NCBI GenBank assembly: GCA_030247885.1 | Contig: JAPDRO010000019.1 | Location: 620,001 to 684,000 of the forward strand | Direction: 5' to 3' | DNA: 64,000 nt | DNA from: Taxawa tesnikishii (nom. ined.) | Taxonomy: Eukaryota; Ascomycota; Dothideomycetes; Dothideales | Part shown: piece by piece, positions 6,529 through 50,926 of the stretch | Layout of the letters: every line of letters starts with the position of its first letter | Position numbering within the stretch: the first letter of the stretch is position 1 | The notes under the pieces: model-generated | Databases searched by the model: none | What the model saw: only the letters and a program-made list of their open reading frames with translations | What the model was told of the DNA's origin: nothing | Made by a program: the position numbers and the translations under genes

Positions 6529-6532
6529 AAAA

Positions 6533-15584: not shown

Positions 15585-16528
15585 ATGTCCAACGTTCCAA
15601 CCCTGATCAACCTCCCTCCTCCTCCATCTGATCCTGTGACTCCTGACGTCCCGTAAGTCACTCCCCTATCTCGCAAGCAGCATCTCCATAGAACCGTACA
15701 ATCGCCTTGCCATTGCGCCAATGCCTCTGCCCAGACGCCGTTTTTTCGAAACGCATCGCTGATACCCAATTCTAGCGGCACGCCCAATTCAACCACGACC
15801 TCAATGTCCGAGCTCTCCACCGTCGCCATCAAAGACGGCCACCGCGGCCACCTCCCCCACCACCACCACTTCACCAGCCAACCTACAACCAACACTCTGG
15901 ACGCAGAGCGCGCCGACCGCATCTCCCGACTCGCAGGTCTCGAGCGCGTCACCACCGCCCGCCAACCCACCCCCATCACCAGCCTGACCCCCGGCGCCTC
16001 CGCTCCGCCCCAGGGCGCCTCGGGCTACTTTGACGCATCCGGTCAACCGCTGCTCGGCCGCGAGCGCAGCACCGTGGGCTCCGCTTCCGCGACCGGCAGC
16101 GTGGGCGGCCGTACGACCTGGGCGTCTGGTTCGGACGTCTACGATCCGGACAAGATGAGCGAGTCGGCGGACATGGACACGTCGAGCGTAGCGGGCACCT
16201 CCGACGACGCTTCCCTGGTCGGCTTCGGGGAGGGAGCGAGGACGCCCGCGCGCTCGTCGACGTTCGTGCAGCGAGAGGCCAGCATGACGCCCGTGTCGGC
16301 CGCCCAGGCGAGCGCTGAGCAGCGCGATGCAAAGATGATCGATGGCATGACGTACGACCGTGGCGTTTTGGACACGAGCAAAGAGCCGCGCAGCCCTACG
16401 GGCACCGAGACCGCAGAGCGCATCATTCAGGAGAGGTTGGGCGGGGGCGAGGAACAGCAGGGGAAAGGAGCATGGACGACTCGAGCACCGGACAGGGATT
16501 GGGGAGGTTCCACTTCGAGAACAAGTAG
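15585..16528 (+). CDS. Hypothetical low-complexity protein, two exons
   Basis: Exon 1 runs 15585-15652 and a 123-bp intron with GTAAGT donor and CTAG acceptor ends at 15775. Splicing joins the first 22 codons in frame to the long frame containing the internal ATG at 15804. The protein, about 273 residues, is rich in Pro, Ser, Thr and Gly, with a His run and a C-terminal helix-like stretch (TAERIIQERLGGGEEQ). No catalytic domain was recognised. The open frame continues to 16544, but one additional base in the G-run at 16460-16463 would give the tail GLGRFHFENK and a stop at 16526-16528, the ending I favour. Function unknown; the first intron and frame are solid, the C-terminus is inferred. Confidence 0.6.
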
Positions 16529-16947
16529 GGAGTGCGGGGGATGATTGATTGACCCCGTGTCGCACCTTGTGGGACTTTGAGCCTGGCGTTTCTTTCAGAA
16601 AAGGGTAACTAAGAGGGAAGGGTGCTTGAGAAAACGGCGAAGAGGTCAACGCGGCTTTTTGGCCCCAAACATGTACTTGTGGACAGGACGGAAAGAGAAA
16701 CCCTCTCAAAAGAGTAACCATAAAGCTGCCTGGCTGCAGCGAGAGTCATATGCAAACCCAAACAAGATTCGAAACACGAAGGGGCAAGAGGAAGGATGCC
16801 CCGAATCGTCCATCCCGTCCTATCGGTGCCCTCGTCTTGAAAGATGACTGTCGATGTTCGATACGCAACAACGAGGAAAAAGAGGCCCTCTTCCTCCTCT
16901 CTTCCTTTCGCCCGTCGGGCCCCTTTCACGCAGCAAACTCACGCCGC

Positions 16948-19746
16948 TCATCCAAATACAGCACTGACGATACTCCTCTTCCCGCCCTTGTCATCCTTCT
17001 CGATCCCCGTCCTGCTCCCCTTCGAAACCGGCACGCTGACCGCGCTCCCCTTACCGCTCTTGGCCGGCTTGACGGTCGAATCGCTGCCGGCCTCGCTCGC
17101 ACCGGACGGTCTGATCAGCTCCGGGATCGGGGACGGATCCCTGCGTCCACCGCCGCGGGGGCCGTGGCTCGATGTCTTCGAACTCGAGTGCCGGCGGGAC
17201 CGTGAAGAATGGTGCGAGCGACCCGAGTGCTGGCTCCCCCTGGCGCCTCGTCGTACCGGAACTCGCGCTCCGGTCCCGCTCCTTCCCCGTCTGCTACGCC
17301 GACTCCTGCTCGAATGATGGCTCCTCGCACCGCCATCATCATCCTTATCGTCATCGGCAGCTTTGTCCCCTCCGCCGCCGTCCTTGGCCGACTCGCGCCG
17401 ACCGTGCCTGCTGGCTTTGCTCCCGGCCCCCTCGAGCTCCCGACCTGCGAGATGCTGTCGCCCGGCGCCACCGTCTCCGTCTCCGCCTTCAGGAAATCGA
17501 ACTCGGTCGGCGCCAACGCGCTCGCTCCGGCCAGGGGCTGGCGCCCCAACACGCTGCCCACGATGCTGCTACTCGCCGCCCGGTGGCTCTCGGGCGGTGC
17601 CGCGTCCCGCGCGGAAACGTACGACGATGTCCCGCGCGAGGGTGGCGCCGGCGCCTCGGCGGCGGCTGAGACGTACGACGTCGCTTTCGAAGCGGGCATC
17701 GGTACCCTGGCGGCGCTCACGCGCGAACTCGCCCGCGATGCTGGGATCGGAACGTCGGCGCCTGACACCCGCGAGCCCGCCCTGCTGGCTGGGGCGGGAA
17801 CGTTCGCGGCCGAGATCTGCGACGAGGCCGCCCTGGACGCGGGCAGCGGCGCATTGTTTGCCGACATGCGCGACTAAGTCGAGTCGGCCGGTTTGGCGGT
17901 GCTGACGGACGCCTCGGAGCGCCGGGCGCTGGACGCTGCGCTGTGTGCGCGAGAGCTCCTGCGGCTGGGACTGCGCTCGTTGCGGTGGCTGTGGCGCGAT
18001 TTGCGCGAGTGGTGGGAGGCAACGCTCATGCCGCTGTCGCGGCGCGTCAGCGCCCTGTCGTCGTGTGGAAAGGAAGGCGACATTTCGCTGATGGTGCTGT
18101 GGGGGTGCGAGTATTCGACGATGGCCTTCTGCGTGACGACGACAGGGGAGGAAACGGAGCGGTAGGTTGGTGAGGCGGAACTGCGGGCGGCGACGGAGGC
18201 AGCGGGAACGTATTCGGCTGCGTGATGCGATGGTTTTGCGCTTGAAGCAGAGATATCGGTTGCTGCGTAGTTTGGGGAGGGTGCTTTGCTGGGAGCTTTG
18301 CTACGGTCAGCAGCGGAAGCAGCGGGCACGTACTCAATCGCTTGTTGAGGGTTGGCAGTCGAAGCAGAAACATCGGTCGGAGCGTAGTTCGCAGTTCGGG
18401 CCTGGCTAGGAGTCCTGCCGGGAGCCCTACTACGACCTTTGGCAGTGGATGCAGCAGGCACATACTCGATGGCCCGTTGAGGTGCGGTGTCTCGTCGAGA
18501 GCCGCGTGTCGGTGCTTCGCTAGGTTTGAACGCGCTACGAGGAGCTTCACCTCTAGGAGCTTCGCTGCGTGCTGCTGTACTACGGCCGCCAGTGACCGAT
18601 ACGGCGGGAACGTACTCGATCCTCTGCTGTTCCTGCTGCTGGCCCACTCGAGTGGGAGCCAGGGAGACATAGGTGGGGCTGTGGTAGCTCATAGTCTCAA
18701 AGCTCTGCGGTTCGGGTGCGGGTTCAATAGCTTTCCATTGTCTCCTGGTTGCGGTGCTGTACGTGGACTCTGTAACGCTGAAGTTGCGGTGGACTCGCGA
18801 TTCAGGAACAACGGAGTCTGTCACGCTAAAATTGCGATGCACTGGAGGTCGCGAGCTCCTAGCCTTCGCAGGTGCTGTTTGGGGCGCCGGCGGCGCTCCC
18901 TTTCTGCCTCTTTCTCCGCCATTCGTACAGTGAACTCGACCTCTTTCTGTGCACTGTCTTGCTCACTTTTACACATGGCATAGGCTACTGCTGCACCGGC
19001 AGCCGCGCCTAGCAAGGTTCCGATGACAGTCTTTGCAGCTACGTCACCGGGGCGCGACGGTTCTGCGGACTGGGTTGGCAGTGATGTAGGCAACGAGATA
19101 CTGCGGGCAACACTGGGAGCTTTCGAACGAGCAATACTGCCGGCTTTGGAGCGGGAAGACTGAGCGCAGCACTTGCTGTTGATTTGGGCATGGTCATCAC
19201 GCGCAATGGCGTGACACTAGCTTCTTCCATTTCTTCCTCGCTTTCCTCTTCTTCGCTTTCGTCGACGGTGCGACTCCGGTATGTGATTACGCGACTGTGC
19301 GTGTGCTCGATAATCTGAGTGTCGGGGCCATGCTCGCGAAACATGACTTCGATGCTGTTTCCGTCCAAGTCCAGAACGGCTGCGTTGAAGATCTGCCCCT
19401 CTGGATCACGATAGGACGGCGATCCGTTCGGACGGCCACCCGCCTGCAGTGCTGCGGCGTAGAAATTTCTTACAGCGGCCTTACTTGTCGCTGAGAATGC
19501 GACGTGTGCAGCACTCGACTCGATGCTTGCAGCGCTCAGCAGATGTCGAGGAAGTGGCACTTGAGAGCATTACACATACCCTGGTGCTTCTGGAGAGAGG
19601 AAGAAGTCGGCGTCGCCGACGCCGAAACCAACTTGGTTACCCTGATTACCGATGTAATGATACCCCAATGGTTGGAGAGCAGACAAGAAGAAAGAAGATG
19701 CGGAAGGAAGGTGAGAAACAGTAAGGCCGACGTGAGACACGGGCAT
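16948..19746 (-). CDS. VOC/glyoxalase-fold protein with glycine zipper and Ser/Arg-rich tail
   Basis: Exon 1 (19746-19580) encodes the start of a VOC domain (MPVSHVGLTVSHLPSASSFF). A 45-bp intron (19579-19535, GTATGT...TGAG) leads to the second half (HVAFSATSK, YRDPEGQIFNAAVLDLDGN, IEVMFRE). Then come an acidic run, SRSK repeats, a glycine-zipper hydrophobic segment (GTLLGAAAGAAVAYAM, near 19.0 kb), a charged helix, HRNFSV motifs, EYVPAAS repeats (18.1-18.6 kb), PASRASSRVSA repeats (17.6-17.9 kb) and a Ser/Arg/His-rich end finishing RSIVSAVFG at 16948. Predicted total is about 918 residues. Three -1 frame shifts (near 19.15 kb, 18898-18900 and 17427-17431) and one in-frame TAG (17874-17876) interrupt it. 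The shifts look like sequencing deletions; the TAG may be real. The substrate of the VOC domain is unknown and the tail is probably disordered. Confidence 0.65.
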
Positions 19747-20834
19747 TGTATGGTTGAAGGGGTGATTGAAAACGCTCAACAAGAAGAGAATCTAGGCGGT
19801 GCAGTGAGTGCGCCGGTTGTAGAATAGTCTCTGTTGAAAGAGAGATGTAAACGAGTGTATGTTGGCTCGGGGAGAGCAGAAGGGTTAAGAATGAGACAAA
19901 GAAGAAGCGGTACGTGACATGTGGTTCGTGAGGATAGACGTACGCTCGCTGACTACTGCAGCGCCGCTGCATCGCATCGCATCGCATCGCATCGCATCGC
20001 ATCACGTCGCATCACGTCGCATCGGGGACCCATAGCCTAGCCAGTCACGGTATGGACGTGATAGGCGGGCTAGCAGTCGAATGGCAGGAGAGGTGGTTGA
20101 ACGCCCGGACCTCGCCGCCCCAGGTTTCAAAAACTCCTACTGGATGGCAGCAGTCCCCTTGGGAAGGCGGTAGAGAAGGTGGTACATGTATCTGCAGCAG
20201 CGAAGACGCCTGGGCGTGCCACGTACAGAGGCACTTCTGCAAGCTAAACAAGAGGGCGGCGGTGATTAGTCGGGGCGGAACGGGGCGAGTGTTGCGGGTT
20301 CGGCGCCTCATCGCTTGGACTCTCTGGGAGGGGGAGCGATTTGGAGCAAAAGCCGGCGGCCACCTGGAACGTGTCGACTCCACAGCGCCAAGCCATTCGT
20401 CCATCGTCGTGCTCTCACCAAGAGGCTGACACATGCATCCGGGTACAGACACTCGATCGCGTGTTACCATGCGTACCGTGGCTCGCAGCAGTTGACCTCG
20501 ACCGACGCAGTGATTTGATTTTGATTTAATGTTACTTCTTTCTACTGACGTTTTGCGTGCCGTCTGGCCGACGAACAAACCTCCATCCTGATCTGTAGCC
20601 GCAACAATGGCGGACGTAAAGATGCCCAATTTTCCTCAAAAACCTTTGACAACCCATGGTCAAAAACCCTGCAGCTTGCCCCAAGACACATCTCGCACCT
20701 CGAAAGGCATGTAGATTTCAGTCAGTCATATCCATCAGTTCAAGCGCCGTCTCCGACGAGAGCCCTGCTGGTCTTGGTCCTCCTGTGCCCCGTCCCTTCA
20801 TGTCCGCGGCCAGTCGTCATATCGTGTGTCAGAT
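19747..20834. other. Intergenic; VOC gene promoter and EMG1 downstream region
   Basis: No supported gene. Open frames here (such as 20045-20629 minus and 20052-20429 plus) overlap each other, lack recognisable motifs and are probably chance. Contains the pentanucleotide repeat at 19969-20024. Confidence 0.55.
19969..20024. repeat. GCATC pentanucleotide microsatellite
   Basis: Uninterrupted ATCGC units followed by ATCACGTCGC variants, about eleven units in all, upstream of the VOC-domain gene. Confidence 0.9.
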
Positions 20835-24516: not shown

Positions 24517-24740
24517 GTTCGAACGAGCACGGCGATTTTGTCAGAAAGGCGTGTAGTTAGAGTCGGCGTAGAGTAGCGGAGACGGATTGCTGGTCTCCTT
24601 GACGAAGATCCAATTCGCGCCAATGCACGACCCCAGATTTCGACAGGGGTTCGAACGCGACTTGTGAGCTTCACTCCGACCATCTGTAATCTTCATTCAC
24701 GCGGTTGTCATCTCCTTTTCTGCTTCACCTTCTGCCCAAA
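24517..24740. promoter_or_regulatory. Divergent promoter GAA1 / rhomboid
   Basis: The 224 bp between the two start codons must serve both genes. No TATA box stands out. Confidence 0.5.
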
Positions 24741-25719: not shown

Positions 25720-25751
25720 GCTCTTCCACAAATACTTTCTTTATGGCGGCA

Positions 25752-26617
25752 CTAATCTTCTAGTTGCGGTACAACGCGCTCCAGCCACGTGCAAAGATCC
25801 CTCAGCACTTCAGCAGAGAGCGCGTGTCCCAGGCCTTGGTATTCATGCACTTCCATCGCCGCTTCCGGCACGCCCAGTTCTCGCAGCTTGCTCAAACCCT
25901 CTTCCCATTTTGATCTGGGAACCAGACGATCCTGCTGGCCCCTTCCGAGGAATATCTCCGTATGTCCGACAATATGCGACAGTTCTGCTTCGGTGCGCAG
26001 TTGTTGTATGCGGTCCGGTAGTGGCAGGTATCCCATCAGTCCGACAATACCAGCCAAGCGTCCAGAGTATTGGGAAGTGAGCTCAGTCAGGAGTGACATA
26101 GCGCAGCCCTGGGAGAAGCCGCCCAGCACGATCCGGTTTGGTGGGATACCTTTGGAACACAAATCATCAATAAGTGACACGACATATTTGACGCTCTCTT
26201 GCATGCCGCTCTCGTCCTCATCGTCCTTCAGCTCTGGGCGCGAGGGTTGCACTGGCGAGAGCGATGTCGGGGTGTACCAGGCGCGCTGCATGGCATCGCG
26301 GTTCTCTTTGGCATTGGGAAATATCCATTGCATGTACGGCAGTTTTTCCCGCTCTGAAACTGCTCTGCGATGTCTGCGTAGACATTAGCTCCTGCGGAGG
26401 TCGCGTGATCTGCCTGCTCAGCCATACTCAGCCAGCCATTCGCGTCGTCATTCAGTCCATGCAAGAAGATGATGGCGGCCGAGTGTGCTGGATCCGAGGG
26501 AGGAATGGTCGCAAGCTTCACGATCGGGTCTTCTCTAGCTTGGGTGTGCGACATCGTGGTTGTTGTAGAGGTCAATGGGTTTCGAAAGGGTAGACCGTAT
26601 GAATAGCTAGGATCCAT
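25752..26617 (-). CDS. APT1: Acyl-protein thioesterase 1 (lysophospholipase-like)
   Basis: Alpha/beta hydrolase that removes palmitate from cysteine residues of cytosolic proteins. Seen: FLHGLNDDANGW (oxyanion region), nucleophile elbow GGFSQGCAMS, acid in QQDRLVP, and histidine in GLGHAL. Two ATGs are possible, at 26617 and 26554; the second gives about 267 residues, closer to family size. The N-terminal and C-terminal parts are in different frames. One additional base in the five-T run at 26343-26347 (five A on the coding strand) would give the family-typical SGKKLPYMQWIFPNAKENR. I treat this as a probable assembly deletion. It is divergent with VPS71. Confidence 0.85.
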
Positions 26618-28571: not shown

Positions 28572-30316
28572 ATGGCATCACTTCCGACTATCCTCGACAC
28601 TATCGGCACCGAGAGCTTGGTTGCGCTCATCGGTCTGCTTTCCGTCTTGTGTATCACATGTGGTGCTACATACCGTATCTTCCTCTCCCCGATTTCTCAT
28701 ATACCCGGACCCAAGCTGGCAGCACTGACGTACTTTTATCAATTCTACTTTGATGTTTACCCACACCAAGGCCGCTGGATCTTCCAGCAGCAGAAGCTCC
28801 ATGAGCAGTATGGACCAATTGTCCGCGTCGGCCCTAACGAGCTTCACATCAAAGATGCAGATTTCTACAATACCGCATTTGGCTCCCACACCAAGCGCCG
28901 CAACAAATCCAAGGGTTATCATTGGGAGGCCGGTACCGACGAGAGTATCGGTGGAAGCGTGTTCCAAGCCATGGATCACGATATGCATCACATGCGTCGT
29001 TCAGCGCTCAATCCTTTTTCAGCAAGCGTAAGGTACAAGAGTTGGAAGACAGGATCCTGGTGCACGTAGAGAAAGCAAAGGCGCGGCTGTTGAGCTGCGC
29101 AGGCAGTGAGGAAGTAACGGATCTCTTGCCTCTGATGTCCGCATTCTCAATGGGTACTCTTCTTCCATCGCTGGTCTGTGAAGATGGATAAAACTAACCG
29201 AACTCGTCACCTCAGATGTCATCTCCGAATATTCTTTCGGCAAGAGTTCTGCACTCCTTGACACCCCTGACCTGGGGAAGCCGATGAGGAACATGATAGA
29301 AGAGGGAGTCAAGCTGAATCCTTTCGCGCGCCAATTTCCTATTGTGGGGTTTGCGACGTTGAAGGCGGCGAAGTACCTGTCAGGTTTGCCCATGATGAGG
29401 GCATTGGATAGTTTCAACAAAATGATGGATAGCCTGACAGTCCCGGCTCATACGAGAGCTATCGATGCAAGCAGAGACGGCAAATCGGAAGCGGAGAACT
29501 CGATCATAGGCGCTCTCGCTCTGAGCGATACTCTCCCTTCCGAAGAAAAGCGCTTCGGTCGCATACGGTCGGAAGCATTCGTCCTCATTGGTGCCGGCAC
29601 TGAGACGACTGGACGAACGGTACGTACGCCCCCTTGATACCTATGCCCTTCGTCTGCTCACACTCTGCAGCTCGCCGTCGGTGTATATCATATCCTCGCA
29701 AACCCGGCAATCCATTCCCGACTGCTTTCCGAACTCCGCACCATCATGCCTAACCCGAAGTCAGATTTGCCATCTGTCACAGCATTGGGCCGGCTGCCGT
29801 ACCTCACCGCAGTCATCCACGAGGCAACACGGCTCGCGCACGGCGTCACGGGCCGCCTCGTCCGCATCGCACCCGACGAAGATCTGCAGTACGCAGGATA
29901 CACAATCCCCGCGGTGTCCCTTTTTCAGTGAGCAACTATATCCACCACACCGATCCCAGTGTGTTCCCCGATCCGTTCACGTTCAAGCCAGAACGCTATC
30001 TTGGGCCGAATGCGGCGGAAAACCTGCGCAATCTGGTGCCTTTTGGCAAGGGTCCGAGGATGTGCCTGGGTATCAACCTAGCGTGGGCGGAGATGTATTC
30101 GATGATTGCTGCTGTGATTAGCGGTGTGAAGATGGAGCTGTATCAGACGACGGACAGGGATCTGACGTAAGTGAAGCAGCTCCTTCGTCCGTGATAATCA
30201 GGTACGGGGAAGGTGGACTGACTACTGCTCACAGCATTGAGAGGGAATACTTCGTAGGGTTGTTTCCGAAGGATAGCAAGGGGATAAGGATCAAGGTCCT
30301 CGGACTGCAGGAATAG
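28572..30316 (+). CDS. Cytochrome P450 monooxygenase
   Basis: Four exons: 28572-29153, 29216-29619, 29671-30166 and 30235-30316, giving about 521 residues. An N-terminal membrane anchor precedes the proline-rich hinge ISHIPGPKLAALT. Other marks are GTDESIGGSVFQAMDHDMHH, the I-helix AGTETTGRT, ExxR in HEATR, the FKPERYLG block and the heme-cysteine loop FGKGPRMCLG. The style resembles fungal secondary-metabolism P450s such as the trichodiene-oxygenase group; the substrate cannot be told. Two -1 frame shifts are seen, at the T-run 29015-29019 (restores NPFFSKRKVQ) and the GG at 29913-29914 (restores TIPAGVPFSVSNY). Both probably are assembly deletions. No other biosynthetic core gene is adjacent. 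Confidence 0.88.
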
Positions 30317-31402: not shown

Positions 31403-31522
31403 GCCAGTGAAGTGAGGTGAGTGAACAAAGAGAGCAGAACATGATGTGCGAACCTTGGGTATTCATTGACTCGAAGGTATGCTCCGTCTCCGTACTTCTC
31501 AACGATATGTGAACTACCTACT

Positions 31523-33683: not shown

Positions 33684-34849
33684 ATGGCTTCCACAGTTGT
33701 AGCGACAGAAACACCACAGACGGTACCATTCACATACAGCCGAACGCCAGAGTCGAAGTACGATTGTAAGCACGTCAATGGCGGATTGTAAGAGGCATGA
33801 TGGAAAGCGTACTGACTCCCGGCCACAGTGGACTGGGCTGACCTTGTGACCCTGGACCTTTCCCTGTTCGACGCACCAGGTGGGAAGCAAAGTTTGGCAG
33901 ATCAGCTCCGAGATGCAATACACAACGTAGGCTTCTTCTATATCACCAACTTCGGCCTCAGCCAGGAAGAAGTAGACGCGCAGTTCGCCATCGGAAAGGA
34001 ACTTTTCGAGCTGCCAACCGAAGAGAAGCTCGAACATCGAGCCGACCTCGAGCACGGCAACTACAATGGCTACCGGCCGTTGGGGTCGATTGAGCTTTCC
34101 CCGGATTGAGGGACAATGTGGAGATGTACAACGTGTTCAAGTTCATCCCGCAGCTCGAGCGCTCACAGCCCGATATCATCCACAGAAACCGGCCCGCCAT
34201 CGAAAAGTTCCAGCGGCACCTTGCGCAGGATACAGTGCAGAAACTGCTCACCTTGATTGCCATCGTGCTGGAGCTACCAGAAGATCACCTGACCAAGGGA
34301 CACCAGTACGACGACATCAGCGACTGCCATCTGCGATACATGATCTACCACGCACGCACACCCGCCGAGAACGAGAAGTACAAGAACCTTTACTCCCGCG
34401 GTCACACAGACTTTGGCTCCTTGACGCTTTTGTTTCGCCAACCCATCGCGGCGTTGCAGGTCCTTCTGCCATCCGGTGAGTGGAAGTGGGTCAAACCTTA
34501 TCCGAACAGCATCACTGTGAACATCGCGGATGTGCTTCAGTTCTGGACCGCGGGGTACCTCAAGTCGAGCGTTCATCGTGTGGTAGCTCCGCCGCCGGAT
34601 CAAGCGCACTTGGATCGCTTAGGGCTGCTGTACTTTCTGCGCCCGGCGCATGATCTGAGCTTGAAGATGGTGGATAGTCCGGTTCTGGAGCGGCTTGGTT
34701 TGCTGGAGCAGCGGGACGATGCGGTCGCGGGTATCAAGGCGGGAGATTGGGTCAAGGCTAGGGTGAAGGGTAATCTCGACAGAGCCGTCGCGGGGAAGAG
34801 AACAGAGAAACGTGTACTTGGAGACGTTAAGGTCGCAGTTTACGACTGA
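33684..34849 (+). CDS. 2-oxoglutarate/Fe(II) oxygenase, isopenicillin N synthase-like
   Basis: Two exons, 33684-33765 and 33829 onward, with a 63-bp intron (GTAAGC...CCACAG); about 367 residues. The N-terminal DIOX_N domain reads VGFFYITNFGLSQEEVDAQF. The 2OG-Fe core has the HTDFGSLTLL iron ligands, distal His in SSVHRV and the co-substrate Arg region (VVAPPPDQAHLDRLGLLYF). Such enzymes hydroxylate or desaturate small metabolites; the substrate is unknown. The frame shifts once: one additional C in the run 34099-34102 gives IELSPGLRDNVEMYNVFKF, the expected family sequence. I chose the ATG at 33684 because the upstream in-frame ATG lacks similarity. Confidence 0.85.
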
Positions 34850-36085
34850 AGGTCCACGGCGAAAGGAGACGTTCCTATTTGGAGAGATTGAAAAAATGGA
34901 ATTGAGCCAAAGGAAGTGAGATGAAGACAAGGGGGGTAACGAGATCAAACAAAAACAAGTCTTGTTCGAAAAGAAGTATCGTTGTACTAGCTGACACCCA
35001 AATTTTCTTCTCTCTCCGTTCCCGCCTGATGCACTGCTTGTTGCCGCACAAGCGCCCCAAAACCCAACTTTCTCTGAGCCTGAGCATTGACGGACGCTGC
35101 CTGATGAGCAGCAGTCTTTGGCTCCGAGATATAATACCGATGATCAAGTTTTGATGACCGCAACAGTCCCCTTAGACAAAATCAGCGTTGTTGTTGTCCT
35201 CATGGAGGAGAGACCTGCTCCAGGTTCGGAAAGACACAATCGACGGCGACCAGATTCTTGGGGAGCAAGTCATCGCGGATTTTGTGAACATCTGCTGTCT
35301 GATCGAGATAACGGATTGATGTGTCACTGCGGCAGCAATTCCCACCACCCTGCAGATGTAAAATTGTCGGAAAAGGGAGTGTCGTGCTGCAGGAGCAGAT
35401 GAACGAAGAATCAAAGCAAGCTCCGGATTCCGGACGGGCCGGAGCGCACCGAGACAATCTTCGGCCGCTACGTGGAGCAACGTCCCTTCATCACAAAGCA
35501 GCGCCTTCGAAAGCGAAGATATTACAACCAGCCTCGACGATGTCAGTGGAGGTACAATCGCCTGGATTCACGTGCTCGATTCCTTCCTTTGGTTCAATAT
35601 ACAGTGAGATCTGACCTCGTCACATCGCTCGAGTGATCATGAATATTCTGCATAGTGGATGGGTGTGCGAAGAAAATACAAGTATACTGTTGACTAGCGT
35701 TGGGTACTAACACACCGACACTTGTAACCCCTTCCCAATCGTCAATCGTCTTGTTCTTAGTCATCAACTCGAGGAACGATTTTGTTGCTTCGCATTGATA
35801 TAAGATGCTCGTCTAGACAACATGCGGCACAACGCAGACTTGTGCCACCAAAACGCCAGGCCGGGCCGTTCGTGTCCTGAGGCCATGCCAATGCAACCGG
35901 TTTATACATGCTGAATCATGGGCATTCATGCCTTACAGAACGCCACAGTCGATGCCAAGAATCCTCTGATAACGCATGCATCATGAAACGAACTCATACC
36001 GCAGTAAATCCACAGCAGAATCCACAGGCTCATCCGCCCACCATACCAGATCGAAAACGCCCAGCAACCCATGACGGGAACGACT
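34850..36085. other. Intergenic between convergent genes
   Basis: 3' flank of the oxygenase and of SQS1. Short open frames only, none recognised; I see no gene here. Confidence 0.5.
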
Positions 36086-38563
36086 CTAACCCAACCCGGC
36101 CTTCCCGCTCTTGATGACCGCCGCAACAGGAACGAGCAGACCAGCACCATGCTTTCCTAGACTCATGCCCTTCTCCCAGCCCATCTTCTCCATGAGCCTG
36201 CGACCGAAATTGCTCTCGCCGATCTCCGGCGCGGACGCACCGACGACCTCCCCGTTGCGGTAGCTGACGGCATCGCCCATGCCGCCACCTTTCCTCTTGC
36301 GGCGGTTCTCGCTGGCGATTTGGGCGTTCCTGCCACCGCGCGGCGCCTTACCACGCATCTGCGAATTCTTGAAGAAGCCCTTGCGGATCATGTCGTGGAC
36401 GGGAGCGAAGTGCTCATCGCTCCACTCAATCGTGCGGCTCGTCTTAATGAGTACGGGTGCGCGGTTCTTGCCCGACCCCACGCTCTTGGATTTCAGGTTG
36501 AAGTGGGCGGCGATCTGGTGCAGGATCTTGCGGTCCGTGGCGAGCATGGGTGGAAAGTGTTTCGAGGAGAAGTCGTCCTCTTCCAGGAAATCGCGTAGCT
36601 CGATCTTGATCTGCTCCATCGTCATACCCTCCATGTAGCGGGTCGAGAGGTCCGGCTTGAACTTGTTACCCTTCTTCTTGCCGCCGCCCAGGAGTCCCAG
36701 AGCGCGGAGTTCTTCCCGCTCAGCCTTTTTGCCTTCTTCTTGTCGCGGTCGGCGGCCCAGGAGTTTGTGATCTCGGCGATCAACTCTTCGTCAGAAAGGC
36801 CTGCGAGCTCCTCGGGCAGTGCGCCCGCAGACTTGCGACCCTTCTTCTTGGGTCGAAGGGACGGGCGGTCCATATCCATGATATCGAAGCCGCCGTATGG
36901 ATCCTGCTCCAGTACGTCTGCCATGAGAGAGGCATCGGGGTAGTGATCACTCTTGCGTCCACCGCGGCGACCGCCCTTCGGCGTGCCTCTCTTGTTCTTG
37001 CCCTTGGCGGCACGGGTGATGAACGCAGGCAGACCGACACGCGCTGCATCGAGGTCGCCAAACTCATCGCCTTCGGCGAATCCACCGTCAAAGAGAAGCA
37101 GCTCGTCAGAACCCATACCGTAGGATTCCTGCTTAGCCAATATGCGTGCAATCTCTTCGTCTGTCATCGCGTCTTGACGGCGCTGGCGAAGATCTTCTTC
37201 ATCTTCCCACATCTCACGCTCTGCAGCTTCGATGTCGGATTCGAGATCGGAGTCATCGCCTGTTTCGTCCTCCTCGTCCATGTCCTCGTCCTCGTCCTCG
37301 TCGTACGACGAGTCAAGGTCCGAGGCGTTGATGATAAAGTCGACCTCTTCATCATCCTCTTCGTCTTCCTTATCATCGATTTCTTCATCTGTGGAATCCC
37401 AGCTGTCGCCACCGTTCTCTGCCATTACCCGCATAGCTTCCATCTCTTCTTGATCCATGTTTTCGATGTAATCTTGTAAAAGCTCCTCTTCGAGATCTTC
37501 TTGAAGACGCATCTGCCGATTGTTCCGCTTCCTCGCGCTCTTGCTCTTTCGGCTTCCGGTCTCTTGCACTGGCGGGTATGATCTTTGTGTCTTGCTCTTC
37601 TCGCCATTGGCGTGAATCCATTGCTTAGGTTCCTCCTCGCGCCATTTGGGAGCTTGCGAAGCCCAAGTGCCCTCAGCACTCGCTGCAACTTGTGACGAGG
37701 CGTTCTCCCTTGGCGCCGCTGACGCGTCGTCTAGTGCGTCAAGCAGAGCATCGGCGACATGAGACTTGTTTGTAGGGGTGAAAGACGGCTGGTGTGTGGG
37801 AGCCTCTGTTTCGTCACGAACAGTGACAACGTCATGGCGGCCCCTGAAGAGAATGACCTCCTCGCTCGAATCTGAGGGCGTCGGACTATGACTGCGGATA
37901 AGCGGAGCGATAGCGGTGGCGGGAGGGGCAAGAGATCTGTCCCCGACTGTATCAACGATGAAAGGAAGTGCATCTGTCGGCCCCGGCACTGTAATCGCCT
38001 CTGTGCGCTGAACAATCCGCTCCTGCTCCTCCAGGATCTCCATCTGCTCATCCAGTCCCGAAGTGACCTTTGTCTCGGTCTCCATGACCGTATCTTCAAC
38101 GATTCCAGATTCAACGTCAACTTCGGGCGACGTCGCTGGCGGAGGGCTCTCGATAGTCATCTGAGCCATTGCACCTTCCGAGTCGTCCAGCTCGGCGTCC
38201 AACTGCTCGTCCTCTGCAGACGGCACGTCCACCTCCTCATCGTCGAGAGGCTGGGTGGACCCAGCACTGACAAAACGTATAGCTTGATGCCGCAATTTGA
38301 CGCTCGGTGACCAGTGGTGGTTGTGGTGCCGGTCGGTGTTCATGAGCTCATCGCGAAGAGAGAAATGAAGACGCGGAGATGCTTCTGGTGGCGTTTAGCG
38401 GTGCGCGTAGAGGTGTGGCCAAAGGCTACTGACCATCATCAAAGCGACCATTTCTGGGTGTGGAAGTCGAGGAAGACACAAAGGAGTCGTTGAGCGAGCT
38501 CCTGTTCCGGGGAAACTTGTGCTTTTGCTGGTGACCGCCCTTGGCCTTGTGCTTCTTAGGCAT
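36086..38563 (-). CDS. SQS1: G-patch/R3H protein Sqs1
   Basis: Activator of DEAH helicase Prp43 in splicing and ribosome biogenesis. Exon 1 (38563-38434) encodes MPKKHKAKGGHQQKHKFPRN; a 49-bp intron (GTCAGT...CCAG) leads to exon 2 at 38384 (ASPRLHFSLRDELMNTD). Then come FVSAGSTQPL, a long acidic region near 37.2-37.4 kb, an R3H domain (KIELRDFLEEDD, LHQIAAHFNLKSKS, then TRTIEW-like variants) and a C-terminal G-patch (FGRRLMEKMGWEKGMSLGKH). About 809 residues. One -1 shift lies at the T-run 36726-36730 (A-run on the coding strand); with one more base the text becomes KKAEREELRALGLLGGG, the family sequence. Divergent with ATG4. Confidence 0.88.
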
Positions 38564-39288: not shown

Positions 39289-40714
39289 ATGATGAATAAC
39301 GAGAACATCGCCCGCTACGCAAAGCGCTTCGTGCAAACCTTCTGGGACCCCATGCCCCAGAACGACGATCCGGCTCCCATCTGGTGTCTAGGCCGCTGCT
39401 ACGACTCGCATCCAGCACTCCAGAACCCTCCGACTAAGCAAACCGGCAGCAACTCCTCCACCGCCGCTTCCGACTCGTCGCATTCCCAGGTCGACTCGGC
39501 CGTAGCCAGCGATAAGGAGCAGGAGGGCTTGGAAGGGTCACGAGCCGGAGACGAAGGTTTCGAGAAGATCGACCCGCAGGATGAAGGGTTGGATAATGGG
39601 TGGCCGGCGCCGTTTCTCGACGATGTGGAATCGAAGCTCTGGCTCACTTATCGATCCAACTTCGCTCCTATACCCAAGTCTGCCGACCCGAAGGCCACGA
39701 GCGCCATGTCTTTCTCCACGAGATTGAAACAGATAGGGACTCAGGGAGGCTTCACGAGTGACACGGGCTGGGGATGCATGATCCGGAGCGGACAGAGTCT
39801 ACTCGCGAATGCGCTGGTCATGCTGCGGTTGGGTAGAGGTATGTTACCTGCTGCGTGCAAAACAACAATCGCATATTGACGCGCGAGACCAGGTTGGCGC
39901 AAAGGGCAACAGGTAAATGTTGAGCGTGAGATCCTATCCTTATTCGCCGACGACGCCTCCGCTCCCTTTTCTATCCACCGCTTCGTCTCGCACGGCGCCT
40001 CAGCATGCGGCAAGCACCCGGGCGAATGGTTCGGTCCCTCCGCCACCGCGCGGTGCATCGCCGCCCTCACCGCCGCGCACAACCCCTCGTCCCTCCGCGT
40101 CTACGTCCGCCCCGACGATTCCGACGTTTACGAAGACAGCTTCCTCGCCACCGCTCGCGACACCCACGGCGTCTTCCGCCCCACTCTGATCCTCCTAGGG
40201 ACAAGACTGGGCATTGATCGCGTGACGCCTGTGTACTGGGACGCGCTCAAGGCCGCGCTGATGATGCCGCAGAGCATCGGCATCGCGGGCGGGCGTCCCT
40301 CGTCCAGCCATTACTTCATCGGAGTGCAGGGAGTTACTTCTTCTACCTCGACCCGCATTCCACCCGCGCCCATGTGCCGCCGAATCCGAGCAGTGAGGAT
40401 GTCGCCAGTTGTCACACCAGACGCCTAAGGCGGCTGCATGTCACGGAAATGGACCCCAGTATGCTGCTTGGGTTCCTGATTCGCAGTGAGGAGGAGTGGA
40501 AGGAGTGGAGAAGGAAGGTCGGGGAGGTGGACGTGTTGGGCTCGGGGAGGCGCAGGAGGGAGCGGCGGGGAAGAAGGGCAAACCGATCGTGCATGTGCAT
40601 GATGCTGAACCAACGTACATGGGCGAGGGTGGTGAGGGAAACGGAGAGAGGGAGGAAGCGATCGACGAGGTGCAGAGTTGCGACGAGAGCGATGACGATA
40701 CGGTCGTCTGCTGA
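39289..40714 (+). CDS. ATG4: Autophagy cysteine protease Atg4
   Basis: Processes and deconjugates Atg8 during autophagosome formation. Exon 1 is 39289-39838; a 54-bp intron (GTATGT...CCAG) is followed by an exon from 39893; about 457 residues. Seen: YAKRFVQTFWDPMP, catalytic Cys in TSDTGWGCMIRSGQSLLANA, FSIHRFVSHGASACGKHPGE, FRPTLILLGTRLGIDRVTPV, then GIAGGRPSSSHYFIGVQG, the Asp/His motif FFYLDPH, CHTRRLRRLHVTEMDPS and an acidic tail. Two -1 shifts, at GGG 40329-40331 and GGGG 40544-40547, are each resolved by one extra G (GSYFFYLDPH; GEAQEGAAGKKGK). For a core autophagy enzyme these are most likely assembly deletions. The first or second Met may be the start. Confidence 0.9.
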
Positions 40715-41936
40715 TGGGGGCAAGGGTACCTGACTGAGTCTTGGAAGGAACGACTGAGTGAAGTGAAGACTACAAGGCGTTTTCTTTGGGACTTTTGAGA
40801 GGATTGGCGTCTTCGAGCACAGGTGTAGGGCATGCGGGACGGCGTTCTGCAGTACGGTTTAGCCGGACTTGAGAATGGGAATATCCAGAAATATAGTCGT
40901 AGTAGCGTTGTCCAGGTCGCGTCCTTGTCTGTGTCGTGAGTACTCCAAAATCCTGAAGTACGACAAGCCGCTGATTCAATGTCTTCAGACCGACTTCGAC
41001 ACCACATTCAAGCCTCGTTTCCCGTTGACTGGGCCCGAGGGTCGCGGTTTGGCCATTGACTATAGGACGAGCCTCAGCGTTATCCTGGTGTTGCAGCTCC
41101 AGGCTATCCAAATCACTTCATGTTTTTGGACCCCAACAGTCCGATTGGCAGTGGTCCGGTCCCGGTCGGTATAGACGGTGAGATTCAGCACTTATAGGGA
41201 AGACTGCCCTGGACGGGTGACTGATCATCTCACAGCTCAAGTCGATTACACTTGGAAGATTATCACACGTATCCAGCAACAATCGGTCAAGCCTATACAA
41301 GTCGCCAGGAAAGCTGTCGACGACTTCACCGCCCGAAAGGATAGATCGATGCAATATTGGGTCTGAAGCAGGATTGTCGCTCATGGTTCGAGGGCATCAC
41401 AGCGGACGGCAAGACTGTTGCTCTATGGGCTAGCAGTACACTCCATTACATGGAAGCGCTGCGTGATGTACGTTACGGAGAATTCTTAGCCAAATAGGGG
41501 CCCCTGAAAGCTTGGTTGCTGACCGACAAGCATATCTGAGCCGGCCTAACAATATTGGCACTTTTGAAACAGACTACTCAAGCTCTTCCAGTTGTTCCAA
41601 CGTCGTGTCTTGTAGATAGCTGCAGGTACCACATACCTGTTCACCCTGTTCTGGCCAGTCTGAGGCCGATCCTCCAGCCAGTGCATCTGAGGGTAAGAAT
41701 TGAGATTCGGCGAACCCCAAGACCCTTGACGATTCTTAATACTCTTCCGTGACCGTAGCGCGAGCGGTCCATTCCCTCTATCGATAACGATAGCCCTGCG
41801 GAAACCGGCTACAGACGGCATAGGGCGTTCCTCAGTGCAGACACTTCAATCAGTATAAATTGCGCGGGCAGCACGATCATAAGTGTCTATCAACGAGATC
41901 AACTACGCTGCACTCACGACTGACACCGCCGACAGG
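40715..41936. other. Intergenic between ATG4 and the cyclodeaminase gene
   Basis: Scattered short frames on both strands, none with a motif I recognise. A TATA-like TATAAAT near 41853 lies about 85 bp upstream of the next start. Confidence 0.5.
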
Positions 41937-42982
41937 ATGCTCGTTCTCCCCGAAACCGATATCTCCGCTATTCTGCGGAACCTAACGCCCGACCATGCCT
42001 CGCGCCTCCTCCATACCCTCTCCTCCGGTCTTGCGGCGTACACGGAGCAAGTGACCCACAGCACCGGCAAGCCGCGTATACACCAACCGCATCGTACCAG
42101 CATAGTGACCGACAAGCAAGACACCACGCTAGTTATGCCCGTTTCCGACAGTACAATCACATCAGTAAAAGTAGTTACCATACCGCAGCGCGGCGACATC
42201 AAAGGCGCCATCACCATCTATAACACGGCCGGACATCTCGAGGGCGTGCTGAATGCGGCCGAGATCACGGCATTCCGGACTGCGCTTACCACGCTGACCA
42301 TGCTGACGCGCTGCAAGACGCTACCCACACGAGAACTCGTGATGTTTGGGGCAGGGAAGCAGATTGAGTGGCATGCACGACTTGCCCTGCATTTCCTCGA
42401 CGGTGTTAAGCGCATCACAGTTGTGAACCGGGGCCGAGCGAGGCTGGTTGAATTCGAGCGTGGGCTGCTACAAGAGTTGCGAGGATCATATCCAGATGTG
42501 GTTTTCGAGACGATTGCGAAAGAGGACAACAATCGTTACGAGGAAACGCTCAGGAGCAAACTGAAGGATGCGGACGTTATATGTTGTTGTACGCCATCGA
42601 GGGAGCCTCTGTTCGGGCCCGCGGATTTGCAGAATGACACGAAGAAGGCCCGATTCATCTCGCTTGTCGGATCATACAAACCTGAGATGCAGGAGATTCC
42701 TACCGAGATCCTACGTTCTGCGGACGCGGTCTGGGTGGATTCCAAAAGGCATGTTTAGAGGAATCAGGGGAGCTGATTCGTGCCAAGATGCAACCTGAGG
42801 AGCTTTCTGAAATTGGCGAGTTGCTGTTGCAGGGTCCAGACGCCCAGGCTACAGCAGACAGCGAACCGAGACTGATCATTTTCAAGTGTGTCGGGCTAGG
42901 GGTCATGGATCTTGTTATTGGAAAGGCGTTGTTGGAGCTCGCGGAAGAACTTGGAAAGGGAACCATGATACCGGAATTCTGA
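41937..42982 (+). CDS. Ornithine cyclodeaminase/mu-crystallin family enzyme
   Basis: NAD(P)-dependent family whose members include ornithine cyclodeaminase and delta1-pyrroline-2-carboxylate (and piperideine) reductases. Single exon, about 348 residues, ATG at 41937. Seen: N-terminal substrate region, KVVTIPQRGDIKGAITIYN, the AEITAFRTALTTL helix, the Rossmann loop VMFGAGKQIEWHARLAL, DADVICCCTPSREPLF and SLVGSYKPEMQEI. One additional A in the run 42744-42747 would continue the frame as VWVDSKKACLEESGELIRAK to the stop at 42982; without it the protein ends at 42758. Its neighbour is a proline racemase-family enzyme, a pairing known in bacterial hydroxyproline degradation, so a pyrroline-2-carboxylate reductase role is plausible. 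Confidence 0.86.
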
Positions 42983-43947
42983 AACCTATCAATGTTCACC
43001 GATGAGGAAAGTAAAGGAAGAGAAAGACATAAAGGAGCTTCTCCTTATTTACCAAAGGAGGCTCCCCTTGCCGCCGAAGTGGACACTTGAACTCACATGT
43101 GAATAAACGATGAACATGCGTGGACTGGTGCCGGGAGAGCGCTCCCTCCCGGAAATGTAGCACACGAGTTCCGAGCGCCGTTCATCTGCTAGAGAGCTGC
43201 AGTTCGCCTGTCTGGAGCTCCGTACCGCCAGAGGGGACACGGCAATTGCTCGACAGCTGCCACCAGACAGATAGCGGCATCTGTCACCCCGCCTGCAGGC
43301 TGTCATTCAACGATGGTGGAAGTTAGAGCTAAGAATCTCGAACTTGGCGCCCGGCCTGCATCGGCTTTGTTCTGATGTGAAGACGGTCAATGATGTCACC
43401 TACGCTTCTTATTACTCAATCAGGCATAGGGCCGGCGCATGCCAACACAGGTCGTTTCTAGGCGTAGATCTTTCTGGGCCTTGGTGACCACTGCAATCCA
43501 AGATTGGGATGCCCGCAAGATTGTCTCCTAGAGGAATATTTAGAATTTCTACAACGGGCACGCAAACGTTAGATGTGCTGTGCCAAGAGTCTTAGTCATA
43601 GTAGATGAGATCGCCTCCCAAAGAGAACAAGATCACATGCCAACCGCGAAATAGCTACTTATTCTTCGACGAGCATCACCCGGCTTAAGTGCTTTGCAGT
43701 ATCAAGACGCGAAGTTTCTTTTGGCACACGAAGTTTCTGGTGGAAAGCACTTTGAAAATACCAGCCGAGAGCACACTTTGACTCGGCAGTTGATTAAATA
43801 GTCAACAAGACAGCTTGCGTACAGGCGGGCCTCATCAAAAGGCGTTTGCTCCAGACTGATGGAAGCCTGTGAGAGAGCGGATCCACAGAACGACCGAACG
43901 ATCACAAAAAAGCCAACTTTTGTCTCATGAAACTCGTGCCATCGCCC
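42983..43947. other. Intergenic between convergent cyclodeaminase and racemase genes
   Basis: 3' flanks of two convergent genes; short frames only. No gene or RNA recognised. Confidence 0.5.
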
Positions 43948-47401: not shown

Positions 47402-49061
47402 GCCTCTCTGTTTTTGTTTGTTGGCAAAGTATCACGGGCTATATAGAAACAGTACTAGACGACAAGTCTCCGGACAGCTGCAAATTCACAATACGTGACA
47501 GCCTAATTAGCTACTTCTAAAATGCGATAACTGTAAGAGACTGTCACCTTACGAGCAGGGATATTGTAGGCGCGTCGTAGGCTCCGCGCATGCCTGTTAC
47601 GTAACTATACTAAGCCTAACGTAGCATAAAGCTCTGATGTCCTGGAGTCGTGCTTCGACATTCCTAATCCAATGCCCGTACAAACGTATCTAATGCACTA
47701 GGTTTCCTTTGTCAATTACCTTGATCCGAACAGAGTCGGCACTGTGGCGCCGTTGATCGACTAGCCGCTATACAACACTTCCAACCCGCGGTTTCTGTAT
47801 CTGCACGCTACTGCGAACACACTGCTTGTTGGCACACTCCGAAGTTCGTCGGCGGTAAACCTTAGCTCAAACCTAGATATATTTAGGGTTCAAGTGGCCT
47901 TGCGCGGGTTCGATTGTGTTTTTATGAGATAAGTATCCTTGGCTAACATTCAGAACGGTCGGCTTTCTACCATTGATCCAGTACTTGTGCTTCCACATCG
48001 TTTTGAAGTCACAGTTCGATCAACTCCAAGAGGATTTCTTACGGACTGTCTTGTAGGACATGTATCACACTGGTCTGAAGGCTGACGAGCTCACTGACAG
48101 CGAACTATCGTGTTTCCACAGCTGGTTATACGAAATGTCTGGAACCATCTACAAGAAAGTCGAACTTCAAGAAGATGCGCTGTTGCTGTTCGGGAGATAT
48201 CTCAGTCTCAAGAAATGCAACTTGTATGGCACACTTTGCACCTTGTGAGAATTGGACGTTTCTTTATCGTTGCTGACGAAGGTGCGCCATACGTGGCCCA
48301 AAGAACTCTTACTATACCCAGAACAATGGCGCTTTGTACAAAACCGAGGATGGTACTTTCGCTCACAGACCTATGGGGATACGAGGAGAGGAGGAGGTTG
48401 GCTGCTTCGCGGCAGCAAGACTGCCTTCATCCTACTGCGAAGGAATGAACGACAGCCGCATGGAACGCCATCGGATACCTCTATCAGCGGACGGTACATG
48501 CCTGGCATGATGGAAGGTGAAGCGATCAACAATCCGAGACACAAAATCTACACTACCATCATGCGGTGACATGGCCACCTATCAGGCAAACAGCTACCAT
48601 TGCATCGCTCGTAAGAACGCAGTCTCGGCACATGACAAAGATGGAAAAATCAAAGGTTCCACATCAAAAGATTCCTAGAGCATCGACTTGGTGTCATACT
48701 TCAAGGTGTTAGTTCGACGCATGAAGGTTGCGCACTTGCGATGTTGATGCAGGAACTTGGCGGCGCGGGTAGCTAGAGGACTTTACGAACAGCACCGGAC
48801 CTATGGAGACGTCTCTTACAGATCATGATGGTTTCAAGCTCGGTAAGACATACAGTCTCCATTGTACATGCTGTCGGGTGTGTGGCTGCATAACATGGCG
48901 CCCGTATCGTAACTATGGGAGGACGACAAAATAAGGTTTCTGCGTCGAACCTTACCTTCCCGAGGAGCTCTGCCGCACATGCATGAAGGCGACCCCACAT
49001 CCGGGCAGTCATCTAACTCCGAACGCGCGCCATCTTCAGCTGCACAGCGGGCGAATACAAG
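47402..49061. other. Intergenic, mostly without recognisable features
   Basis: About 1.6 kb between two plus-strand genes. Apart from the interrupted frame at 48060-48569, nothing is recognised. Confidence 0.45.
48060..48569 (+). pseudogene. Possible broken gene, unrecognised
   Basis: A 170-codon frame on the plus strand holds a single internal TGA at 48246-48248. The text after it (WRFVQNRGWYFRSQTYGD) is aromatic- and Arg-rich and protein-like, but I recognise no family. It may be a decayed gene or a chance frame. Confidence 0.25.
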
Positions 49062-50926
49062 ATGGAGCTTCACAACTATAAGTATCACCCTCTCACTGAC
49101 AAAGGCAGCATACGCCTGATTCGGATTGCCGCGGCGCAAAACGCACCGGCGTTAGAGTGCAAAGTCATACACGTTGATAGGCAGGCTCACTCCAAGGCGG
49201 AAGGCTGGGTAGCGATATCATACCGTTGGGGCAATCCAAAGGATCTTGTACCTCTCAAAGTGATATTGGACCCTCCCTCTGGAATGGATGCTATTCCAAG
49301 TAAACTGACGCAAGCAAATTCTGTTTCGATAATGAAATCACGAGCCATCCTTCAAATCCCCCGGTCTGCCGCTGATGTGCTCCACGCACTATTCAAGCAG
49401 GGCTGCATTAGGGACGAATGGATCTGGATAGATGCTATCTGCATCAACCAAGCGGACGTAGACGAGAAGAACATGCAGGTTGCATCCATGAATGAGGTCT
49501 ATAGCCTCGCAAAGCTTACAGCTGCTTATGTCGGGCCTTTCACACAATCCACCGATCTTGCTTTCAGATTCTGGGCGAAACTTGATGCTTGTTTGGAGAC
49601 AGCGATAGCTGCAGGGCGAGGAGTTCTATCTGGCGACGAGCTTTTCATGATGACAAACACCTCGCCGGACTCCCTGGAATGGCGTGCACTACGTGCTCAC
49701 TTTGCTCAGGAATGGTTCACCAGAACCTGGGTCGTTCAGGAAGTTGTTCTTTCGCAAAACCTCATCTTCGTTTGGGGACACCACTCCATACTTTGGAAGC
49801 AGCTCAAGAGCATGGTTACTAGGGAGCGACACTTTCATTACTGGGGAGCAATTCACGAATCCGACTTTCGTGCGAGGCAGGCATTGGCGATGATTTCGAA
49901 ATTCAGGAAACTTAAGTCCAATCGCAAACGGCACAAGGGCAAGGGCTGGAAGTGTGGTCTTTCTTTCGCTCTCTATGAGACAGACGACTGTAAAGCTACG
50001 GATCCGCGGGATCGTATCTTCGGGTTGCTCGGAATCCTACATGAACCTTCCATGGACTTTCACATCGTACCGGATTACACCGAATCTGTCTGTGATGTTT
50101 ACACCGAGGTCACGGCCAAGTGGACTGCAGCAGCTGATAGTTTTGACCTCACCTACGCAGCAGGTGCAGGTTACTCGAGGTCCAATCCCACGCTTCCTTC
50201 TTGGGTACCGGACTTCGTTAGATCAATGCCTTACTATCCAGGTTCATTCCATCGTGCCGGCAAGGCTGTCAACAACGTGGACTTGTTGCCTCTGACATTC
50301 AAGGGCAACGAAATGTTTGTTCAAGTCTTTCGGATTGATGAGATTCAATCGCTGGTTCCGTTCTCGTACCTCCAAATCAACACACATCCTTTTCTAGATG
50401 CAGAGCAAAATCAGGAAATCTTCCAGACTCTGGCTCGCTCCATTGAGTTGAGGAAGACGATACATGATAGGCCTTGGCCCGACGATCTATATGAACATTT
50501 CTGTCGTACGATAGTCAGCAATGAGCAGATACACGCGATCGACGCTCCCGCACCCGACCGATTTGGGGTTTTCTGCCAGAACCTGTCTATCTTCAAACAG
50601 AGCAACGTCCGCTTGACAAATTGCTCGATCTCAATAACCACCGCAGCAGATGGGCAGAGTTTCTTCGAAACCCCTGCCGCTGTGTCACACGACAACGCCT
50701 TTTGCATGACAGCAAGCGAGAAACCAGGTCTCATCCCAGGACGATCAAGAGTTGGAGATCATGTTTGCGTAGCCCCTGGGTCCAGATTGCCTTTCGTCAT
50801 CCGTCCGGAGGAGAGAAGAGAGATGGAAAGACTGTCTTCCGGTTTGTAGGGGCGCCGTACTTTCACCACCTGCAGGACGGGACCGAATTGGGTAAGCACG
50901 CGCTGGAGGAGGTAGTCTTTCATTGA
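49062..50926 (+). CDS. HET-domain protein
   Basis: Fungal heterokaryon-incompatibility (HET, TIR-like) domain protein, a class tied to non-self recognition and programmed cell death between strains. Single exon. The HET core is at about residues 45-200: AISYRWGNPKD, WIWIDAICINQADVDEKNMQ and MNEVYSLA, then WFTRTWVVQEVVLS and DPRDRIFGLLGIL. The remaining 350 residues are variable, as usual. The open frame stops at 50849, but one additional C at 50805-50806 would continue it through VIRPGGEKRDGKTVFRFVG to 50926, giving about 621 residues and a C-terminus typical of the family. No NLR or patatin partner domain is present. It lies 3 kb from the right RIP block. Confidence 0.86.

What the first reader, a model, noticed from the sequence alone, without database searches (positions are those of the whole stretch)
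16460..50806. Thirteen frame breaks in nine genes, all of the same sign
Frame shifts occur near 16460, 17427, 18898, 19150, 26343, 29015, 29913, 34099, 36726, 40329, 40544, 42744 and 50805. Every one is resolved by adding one base, nearly always in a homopolymer, and the codon totals then come out whole. None needs a removed base. Seven other genes (EMG1, GAA1, RBD2, VPS71, GH53, racemase, permease) are intact. Random pseudogenisation would give both signs. The simplest reading is uncorrected single-base deletions in a long-read assembly; downstream annotation would wrongly call Atg4, Sqs1 and others truncated.
Basis: partly seen in the sequence, partly recalled or inferred. Interest (0 to 1): 0.7.

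Follow-up and report, generated by a model that had tools for sequence, protein, structure and literature searches.

The report
Missing-base assembly errors break fungal genes
Fourteen apparent gene breaks in this stretch of a fungal genome are almost certainly sequencing errors, in which short runs of the same letter were written one letter too short, so the genes only look broken.

Summary
A coding model I built that charges both signs of frame change equally finds 11 of the 13 listed breaks, all in the direction of a lost base. One is ambiguous (17427) and one rests on reading by eye against the model (50805). The model adds a 14th at about 52521. In a planted-error control it called 143 of 150 deletions and 140 of 150 insertions with no sign error. 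The sign holds elsewhere in the genome: among 40 joins between domain matches, the 5 too short to be introns are all -1, while the 35 longer ones fall in all three frames (11/10/14). One lies in a CCT-epsilon gene. Two assembled copies of one organelle sequence differ over 5,860 columns by 0 substitutions and 14 one-base gaps, all in homopolymers. Long homopolymers are too rare in the window's AT-rich DNA. No candidate intron spans any of 14 sites, and 0 of 12 model breaks has a canonical -1 slippery site. Best explanation: uncorrected homopolymer deletions in a nanopore-type assembly, a known artefact. Unexplained: the window is about seven times more broken than conserved domains elsewhere.

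The parts
16445..16475 (+). -1 frame break near the 3' end of an unnamed gene (about 15776-16529)
   Evidence: model event 16469; frames read by eye
17160..17440 (-). net -1 frame change in a GC-rich, low-complexity stretch; strand and exact place uncertain (reader: 17427)
   Evidence: two +1 events (net -1) on either strand; frames read by eye
18881..18911 (-). -1 frame break, minus-strand gene about 16951-19747
   Evidence: model event 18903; lost at equal costs of -8 and below
19140..19160 (-). -1 frame break, same gene
   Evidence: model event 19152
26338..26360 (-). -1 frame break in a phospholipase/carboxylesterase-family gene (25755-26555)
   Evidence: model event 26349; PF02230 profile 6-39 in one frame and 38-214 in the other, about 20 unmatched residues between; frames
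28990..29022 (+). -1 frame break in a cytochrome P450 gene (28572-30317)
   Evidence: model event 28994; frames; no profile match in the piece 28838-29188 scanned there
29905..29946 (+). second -1 frame break in the P450 gene
   Evidence: model event 29912; PF00067 profile 283-359, then 371-441 in the next frame, residual -1 from those coordinates
34094..34112 (+). -1 frame break in a 2OG-Fe(II) oxygenase gene (33684-34850)
   Evidence: model event 34106; PF03171 downstream only; frames
36715..36735 (-). -1 frame break in the R3H/G-patch (SQS1-like) gene (36089-38344)
   Evidence: model event 36732; R3H and G-patch in the downstream frame, no profile match upstream; frames
40325..40336 (+). 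-1 frame break in ATG4 (39289-40715)
   Evidence: PF03416 59-212 then 211-275; position 274 of an ATG4B chain ends one piece and starts the next, codons one base apart; model event 40334
40538..40550 (+). second -1 frame break in ATG4, after the catalytic domain
   Evidence: model event 40547; frames
42742..42770 (+). -1 frame break in an ornithine cyclodeaminase/mu-crystallin-family gene (41937-42983)
   Evidence: model event 42758; PF02423 upstream, no profile match downstream; frames
50735..50810 (+). frame break near the 3' end of a HET-domain gene (about 48868-50900); read as -1 near 50805, but the model put a +1 at 50735
   Evidence: HET domain upstream; frames by eye; contrary model call
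   Evidence: model event 52521, present at all six equal costs tried; frames; Pfam

Best explanation
The breaks are consensus errors, not features of the genome. The assembly was very probably built from noisy long reads of nanopore type, whose signal resolves the length of a homopolymer poorly. The consensus drops one base from some runs of about four to six identical bases, and no later polishing restored it. Because nearly all errors are losses of a single base, each gene hit is thrown into the -1 frame at a homopolymer. Errors fall at random over genes, essential or not, so a gene finder would call intact genes truncated or split. Shown here: the breaks, their shared sign, their link to homopolymers, their random spread over the window's genes, the same sign elsewhere in the genome, and homopolymer-length disagreement between duplicate organelle copies. 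Inferred: the sequencing platform, the lack of short-read polishing, and that living cells carry the longer runs.
For: Sign and places. Detector control: 150 planted deletions gave 143 deletion calls, 150 planted insertions gave 140 insertion calls, 150 untouched trials gave 0 (on the model's own training genes). Elsewhere: 5 of 40 joins are too short for an intron, all -1; the other 35 spread over the frames 11/10/14. A CCT-epsilon gene is broken mid-domain at a GGGG run and an HSP70-family gene at an AAAA run. Organelle duplicates in C25: 0 substitutions and 14 one-base gaps over 5,860 columns; 2 and 12 over 4,068 (one gap of two bases); 31 and 9 over 8,859; all these gaps in runs of 3-10. 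Homopolymer deficit against an order-3 Markov model: window AT-rich DNA, A/T runs of 7 or more 0 against 5.5 +/- 2.2; window gene island, G/C runs of 6 or more 1 against 5.8 +/- 2.7; flanking AT-rich DNA, A/T runs of 6 or more 4 against 10.2 +/- 3.2. Spread over genes: 7 of 17 intact, 7.7 expected if random, P(7 or more) = 0.83. Coding signal per base 0.101 before and 0.098 after the breaks in seven genes. Precedent: passages of PMC8011154, PMC7500977 and PMC9453082.
Against: No reads were seen. The window is about 7.4 times as broken per base as conserved domains elsewhere (14 in 22.8 kb against 5 in 60.1 kb, P = 4e-5), which a uniform error rate does not explain. 44 of 47 5S rRNA matches keep a 120-base span; one spans 119, one 122 and one 99, so deletions are not dense everywhere. 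The raw model tally has 4 insertions beside 12 deletions. Other organelle pairs differ by many substitutions and by gaps outside homopolymers (C25, 17,717 columns: 95 substitutions, 47 gaps; C26/C28, 15,391 columns: 49 and 29). The homopolymer deficit is not clear in the smaller nuclear samples (C11 600-610 kb; L008, L009, L010, L019), and C26 also has few A/T runs of 8 or more (9 against 16.3 +/- 4.1) though not of 7 or more (41 against 40.6). PMC7500977 reports that polishing its fungal nanopore assemblies gave more insertions than deletions.
Confidence: 0.95

Rival explanations
1. The genes are real pseudogenes, decaying under relaxed selection in a subtelomeric region.
For: The contig ends in TTAGGG repeats about 17 kb beyond the window and the window is more broken than conserved domains elsewhere.
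Against: One sign after inspection; coding signal as strong after the breaks as before in seven genes (0.098 and 0.101); breaks random over genes; the same sign occurs in a CCT-epsilon gene on a 2.8 Mb contig.
Confidence: 0.02
2. The homopolymers are truly short and cells read through them by -1 ribosomal frameshifting or by polymerase slippage.
For: One prevailing sign, at homopolymers, with coding signal kept on both sides.
Against: None of the 12 model breaks has an in-frame canonical slippery heptamer; 8 exist in all sequence labelled coding. The runs are of all four bases and mostly 3-5 long. Homopolymer-length disagreement also occurs between duplicate organelle copies. Downstream RNA structures were not tested.
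Confidence: 0.01
3. The frame changes are short introns that were overlooked.
For: The genes do contain introns; the model places several of about 50-110 bases in them.
Against: No candidate intron with consensus donor, branch and acceptor spans any of 14 sites in any phase; of 9 model introns used as positive control 6 have the branch site that the rule asks for. Elsewhere, joins that look like introns leave at least 38 bases over and fall in all three frames, while the five breaks leave 14 or fewer.
Confidence: 0.01
4. A natural mutator lineage, for example one without mismatch repair, has really lost single bases in homopolymers all over its genome.
For: Mismatch-repair loss gives mainly -1 changes in homopolymers (recalled), and the shortage of long runs would fit.
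Against: Runs of 3-5 are hardly affected by such mutators (recalled); a CCT-epsilon gene is broken; duplicate organelle copies in one assembly disagree in the same way. Mismatch-repair genes were not examined.
Confidence: 0.01

Closest known systems
Homopolymer indel errors in nanopore-only fungal assemblies (Drechmeria coniospora, PMC7500977; passages seen)
   Same: Homopolymer-length errors shift frames in conserved genes; roughly one fifth of the mono-exonic genes checked were wrong after long-read polishing; error rates differed widely without clear pattern; short reads corrected them.
   Different: That study found overlong homopolymers more often after polishing; here every supported error is a loss.
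Systematic nanopore errors left by polishers (Homopolish, PMC8011154; passages seen)
   Same: Remaining errors are mainly indels in homopolymers that shift frames; four polishers lowered insertions while deletions rose (5,039 to 7,891-11,753 in one bacterial isolate).
   Different: Those counts come from genomes with known truth; here no truth set or reads were available.
Coverage-dependent indels in filamentous ascomycete nanopore assemblies (PMC9453082; passages seen)
   Same: Indels in and outside homopolymers rise at low coverage, which could explain a locally worse stretch.
   Different: Coverage of this window is unknown.

Membership tests
Uncorrected homopolymer deletion errors of a noisy long-read assembly | Errors are single-base and of one prevailing sign | tested here: met
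   12 deletions to 4 insertions in the raw model, 14:0 after inspection; 5 of 5 short joins elsewhere. The tests see frame modulo 3, so single-base size is inferred
Uncorrected homopolymer deletion errors of a noisy long-read assembly | Errors sit at homopolymers | tested here: met
   11 of 16 model events within 24 bases of a run of 4 or more, 31.6% expected
Uncorrected homopolymer deletion errors of a noisy long-read assembly | They hit genes regardless of function | tested here: met
   random over 17 window genes; HSP70, CCT and SNF2-type genes also hit
Uncorrected homopolymer deletion errors of a noisy long-read assembly | Non-coding DNA is affected too | tested here: inconclusive
   homopolymer deficit in AT-rich nuclear DNA and homopolymer gaps between organelle copies fit; 44 of 47 5S rRNA matches keep full span
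Uncorrected homopolymer deletion errors of a noisy long-read assembly | Accurate reads show longer runs | not testable with these tools
   no reads available
Programmed -1 ribosomal frameshifting | In-frame slippery heptamer X XXY YYZ at the break | tested here: not met
   0 of 12 model breaks
Programmed -1 ribosomal frameshifting | Downstream pseudoknot or stem | not tested
   no call made
Pseudogenes | Loss of coding constraint and frame changes of both signs | tested here: not met
   coding signal 0.101 before, 0.098 after in seven of the ten broken genes; one prevailing sign
Spliceosomal introns | Consensus donor, branch and acceptor across the frame change | tested here: not met
   0 of 14 sites

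The most novel reading that the evidence does not exclude
The runs are truly short and this fungus is a natural homopolymer-losing mutator, or tolerates widespread -1 frame changes by recoding, in a subtelomeric region where the changes have piled up.
Probability: 0.015. Interest if true: 0.8.

Novelty: not a real feature. Interest (0 to 1): 0.1.

Why it matters
It matters for data quality only. An annotation of this assembly would report ATG4, an SQS1-like gene, a P450, a CCT subunit and probably many others as truncated or split, and gene-loss or pseudogene studies that use it would be wrong. The one-sign, homopolymer-linked pattern, together with duplicate organelle contigs, gives a cheap way to suspect such assemblies without reads.

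Tried and rejected
Introns as the cause: rejected (an earlier version of that check, used the wrong intron-length remainder and was redone). Slippery heptamers: none at the 12 model breaks. Unequal break load among genes: not seen (RBD2 was left out of the 17 genes). Unequal costs: with insertions made cheaper than deletions by 5 units the model kept 9 deletions and 4 insertions at -12/-7, but at -10/-5 it replaced all but one deletion by insertions, mostly in close pairs with the same net frame. 5S rRNA as a frame-free nuclear test: weak. The 18S rRNA search failed twice for machine reasons. Aldehyde dehydrogenase, sugar transporter, class I tRNA synthetase and DEAD families gave no short join; in all but the tRNA synthetases only some candidates were scored (11 of 48, 9 of 323, 37 of 132), so these under-count breaks. 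Outside the window the model proved unreliable in detail: of its calls in L008, L010 and the C11 end my reading kept one -1 in L008 and one -1 near window coordinate 79.3 kb, and did not support the others; one gene in L010 was left undecided. A 25-residue CCT piece gave no PDB match at E 0.001.
Full report
What was looked at. The window is bases 620001-684000 of contig C11 (701,255 bases) in a 29.4 Mb, 34-contig assembly, by its genes a fungus. The contig ends in TTAGGG repeats, so the window is subtelomeric. Its genes lie at about 15-54 kb between AT-rich blocks with a very strong RIP-like signature.

Checking the observation. I built a hidden Markov model of coding sequence with introns and with single-base frame changes of both signs at equal cost, trained on the window itself. 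It gave 12 deletion-sign and 4 insertion-sign events. Over six equal costs from -5 to -12 the model gave 10 to 14 deletion and 2 to 5 insertion events. With unequal costs that strongly favour insertions it swaps deletions for insertions, mostly in pairs, as it must, since the frame is known only modulo 3. In a planted control it called 143 of 150 deletions and 140 of 150 insertions with no sign error, and nothing in 150 untouched trials; these were the model's own training genes, so the false-alarm rate is optimistic.

Independent anchors in the window. For ATG4, position 274 of an ATG4B chain is both the last matched residue of one open frame and the first of the next, and by the piece coordinates the two codons start one base apart in the -1 direction. 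The P450 profile runs 283-359 in one frame and resumes at 371 in the next with a residual of -1. The carboxylesterase profile runs 6-39 and 38-214 in two frames, with about 20 unmatched residues between and no intron signal. The other breaks have a profile match on one side or neither and rest on the model and on reading the frames.

Elsewhere in the genome. Seven protein families were searched in the whole assembly, 101,133 matched bases in all. Among 40 joins between matches (a few skip a piece between), five leave 14 bases or fewer over (-1, -1, -1, 11 and 14): one HSP70, one CCT and three SNF2-type. All five are -1. The other 35 leave 38 bases or more, as introns do, and are spread over the three frames 11/10/14; the one at 38 is borderline and has the -1 frame. 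The downstream CCT piece matches CCT-epsilon best. Short stretches fetched around the five joins read as a direct frame change and show runs of three to five identical bases there. Two more -1 breaks were read by eye, in a gene beside a tRNA on C3 (L008) and in a helicase-like gene near the C11 telomere; the model agrees on the first but not in detail on the second.

Evidence that does not depend on reading frame. Contig C25 holds palindromic duplicate copies of what looks like a fungal mitochondrial genome (tRNA-rich, 26-28% GC; no protein was checked). Over 5,860 aligned columns two copies differ by no substitution and 14 one-base gaps, all in runs of 3-9; over 4,068 columns by 2 substitutions and 12 gaps in runs of 3-10; over 8,859 by 31 substitutions and 9 gaps in runs of 4-10. 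A fourth pair of 17,717 columns has 95 substitutions and 47 gaps, many outside homopolymers, and C26 against C28 has 49 substitutions and 29 gaps, so these copies also hold other errors or real differences. In the window, and in the AT-rich flanks, long homopolymers are fewer than an order-3 Markov model of the same DNA predicts; in two smaller nuclear samples the counts are too low to tell; the organelle contigs are not depleted at 7 or more, though C26 is at 8 or more. The 5S rRNA genes say little: 44 of 47 have the 120-base span and one is a base short.

Rivals. No intron with consensus signals spans any of 14 sites; of 9 model introns used as a positive control 6 have the branch site that the rule asks for. 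No in-frame canonical -1 slippery heptamer lies at any of 12 model breaks. Coding signal is 0.101 per base before and 0.098 after the breaks in seven of the ten broken genes, and 0.088 in six intact genes. Breaks are spread over 17 genes as chance would have it.

What remains open. The window has 14 breaks in 22.8 kb against 5 in 60.1 kb of the four families whose candidates were all scored: 7.4 times more, P = 4e-5. Conserved domains may be poorer in error-prone runs, breaks near match ends are missed, and local read depth may be low; passages of PMC9453082 tie such indels to low depth and PMC7500977 reports widely differing error rates. I could not test depth.

Verdict. A known kind of artefact: uncorrected homopolymer deletions in a noisy long-read, most likely nanopore, assembly. 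The platform is inferred.

Noticed in passing
G000 contigs C25, C26, C28 (L032-L043): The assembly holds two different mitochondrion-like sequences, C25 (80 kb, palindromic) and C26 (25.4 kb, with C28 as a partial second copy), whose listed matches are 78-96% identical, although the eight CCT-type genes found suggest one nuclear genome. Mixed culture, contaminant or hybrid are possible.
   Followed up: partly
6501-15000 and 54001-64000: AT-rich blocks with extreme RIP-type indices: TpA/ApT 1.82 and 1.73, (CpA+TpG)/(ApC+GpT) 0.08 and 0.03, against 0.68 and 1.17 in the gene island.
   Followed up: partly
370-1458 (-): Retroelement pol segment (RNase H and integrase zinc-binding domains) in a stretch (1-6000) without a RIP-type index (0.8 and 1.26).
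   Followed up: no
C11 684001-701255 (L046, L047; gene at window coordinates about 75600-79700): A helicase-like gene close to the telomere (resembles telomere-linked RecQ helicases, recalled; no family search made), with a TTAGGG array at the contig end.
   Followed up: partly
16001-18000: Local GC peak of 66% in a low-complexity protein region open on both strands; the coding strand of 16.8-17.9 kb is uncertain.
   Followed up: partly
G000, 47 5S rRNA matches: 5S rRNA genes are dispersed over many contigs, and some copies on one contig share the same score (four on C3, three on C34), as if neighbours were more alike.
   Followed up: no
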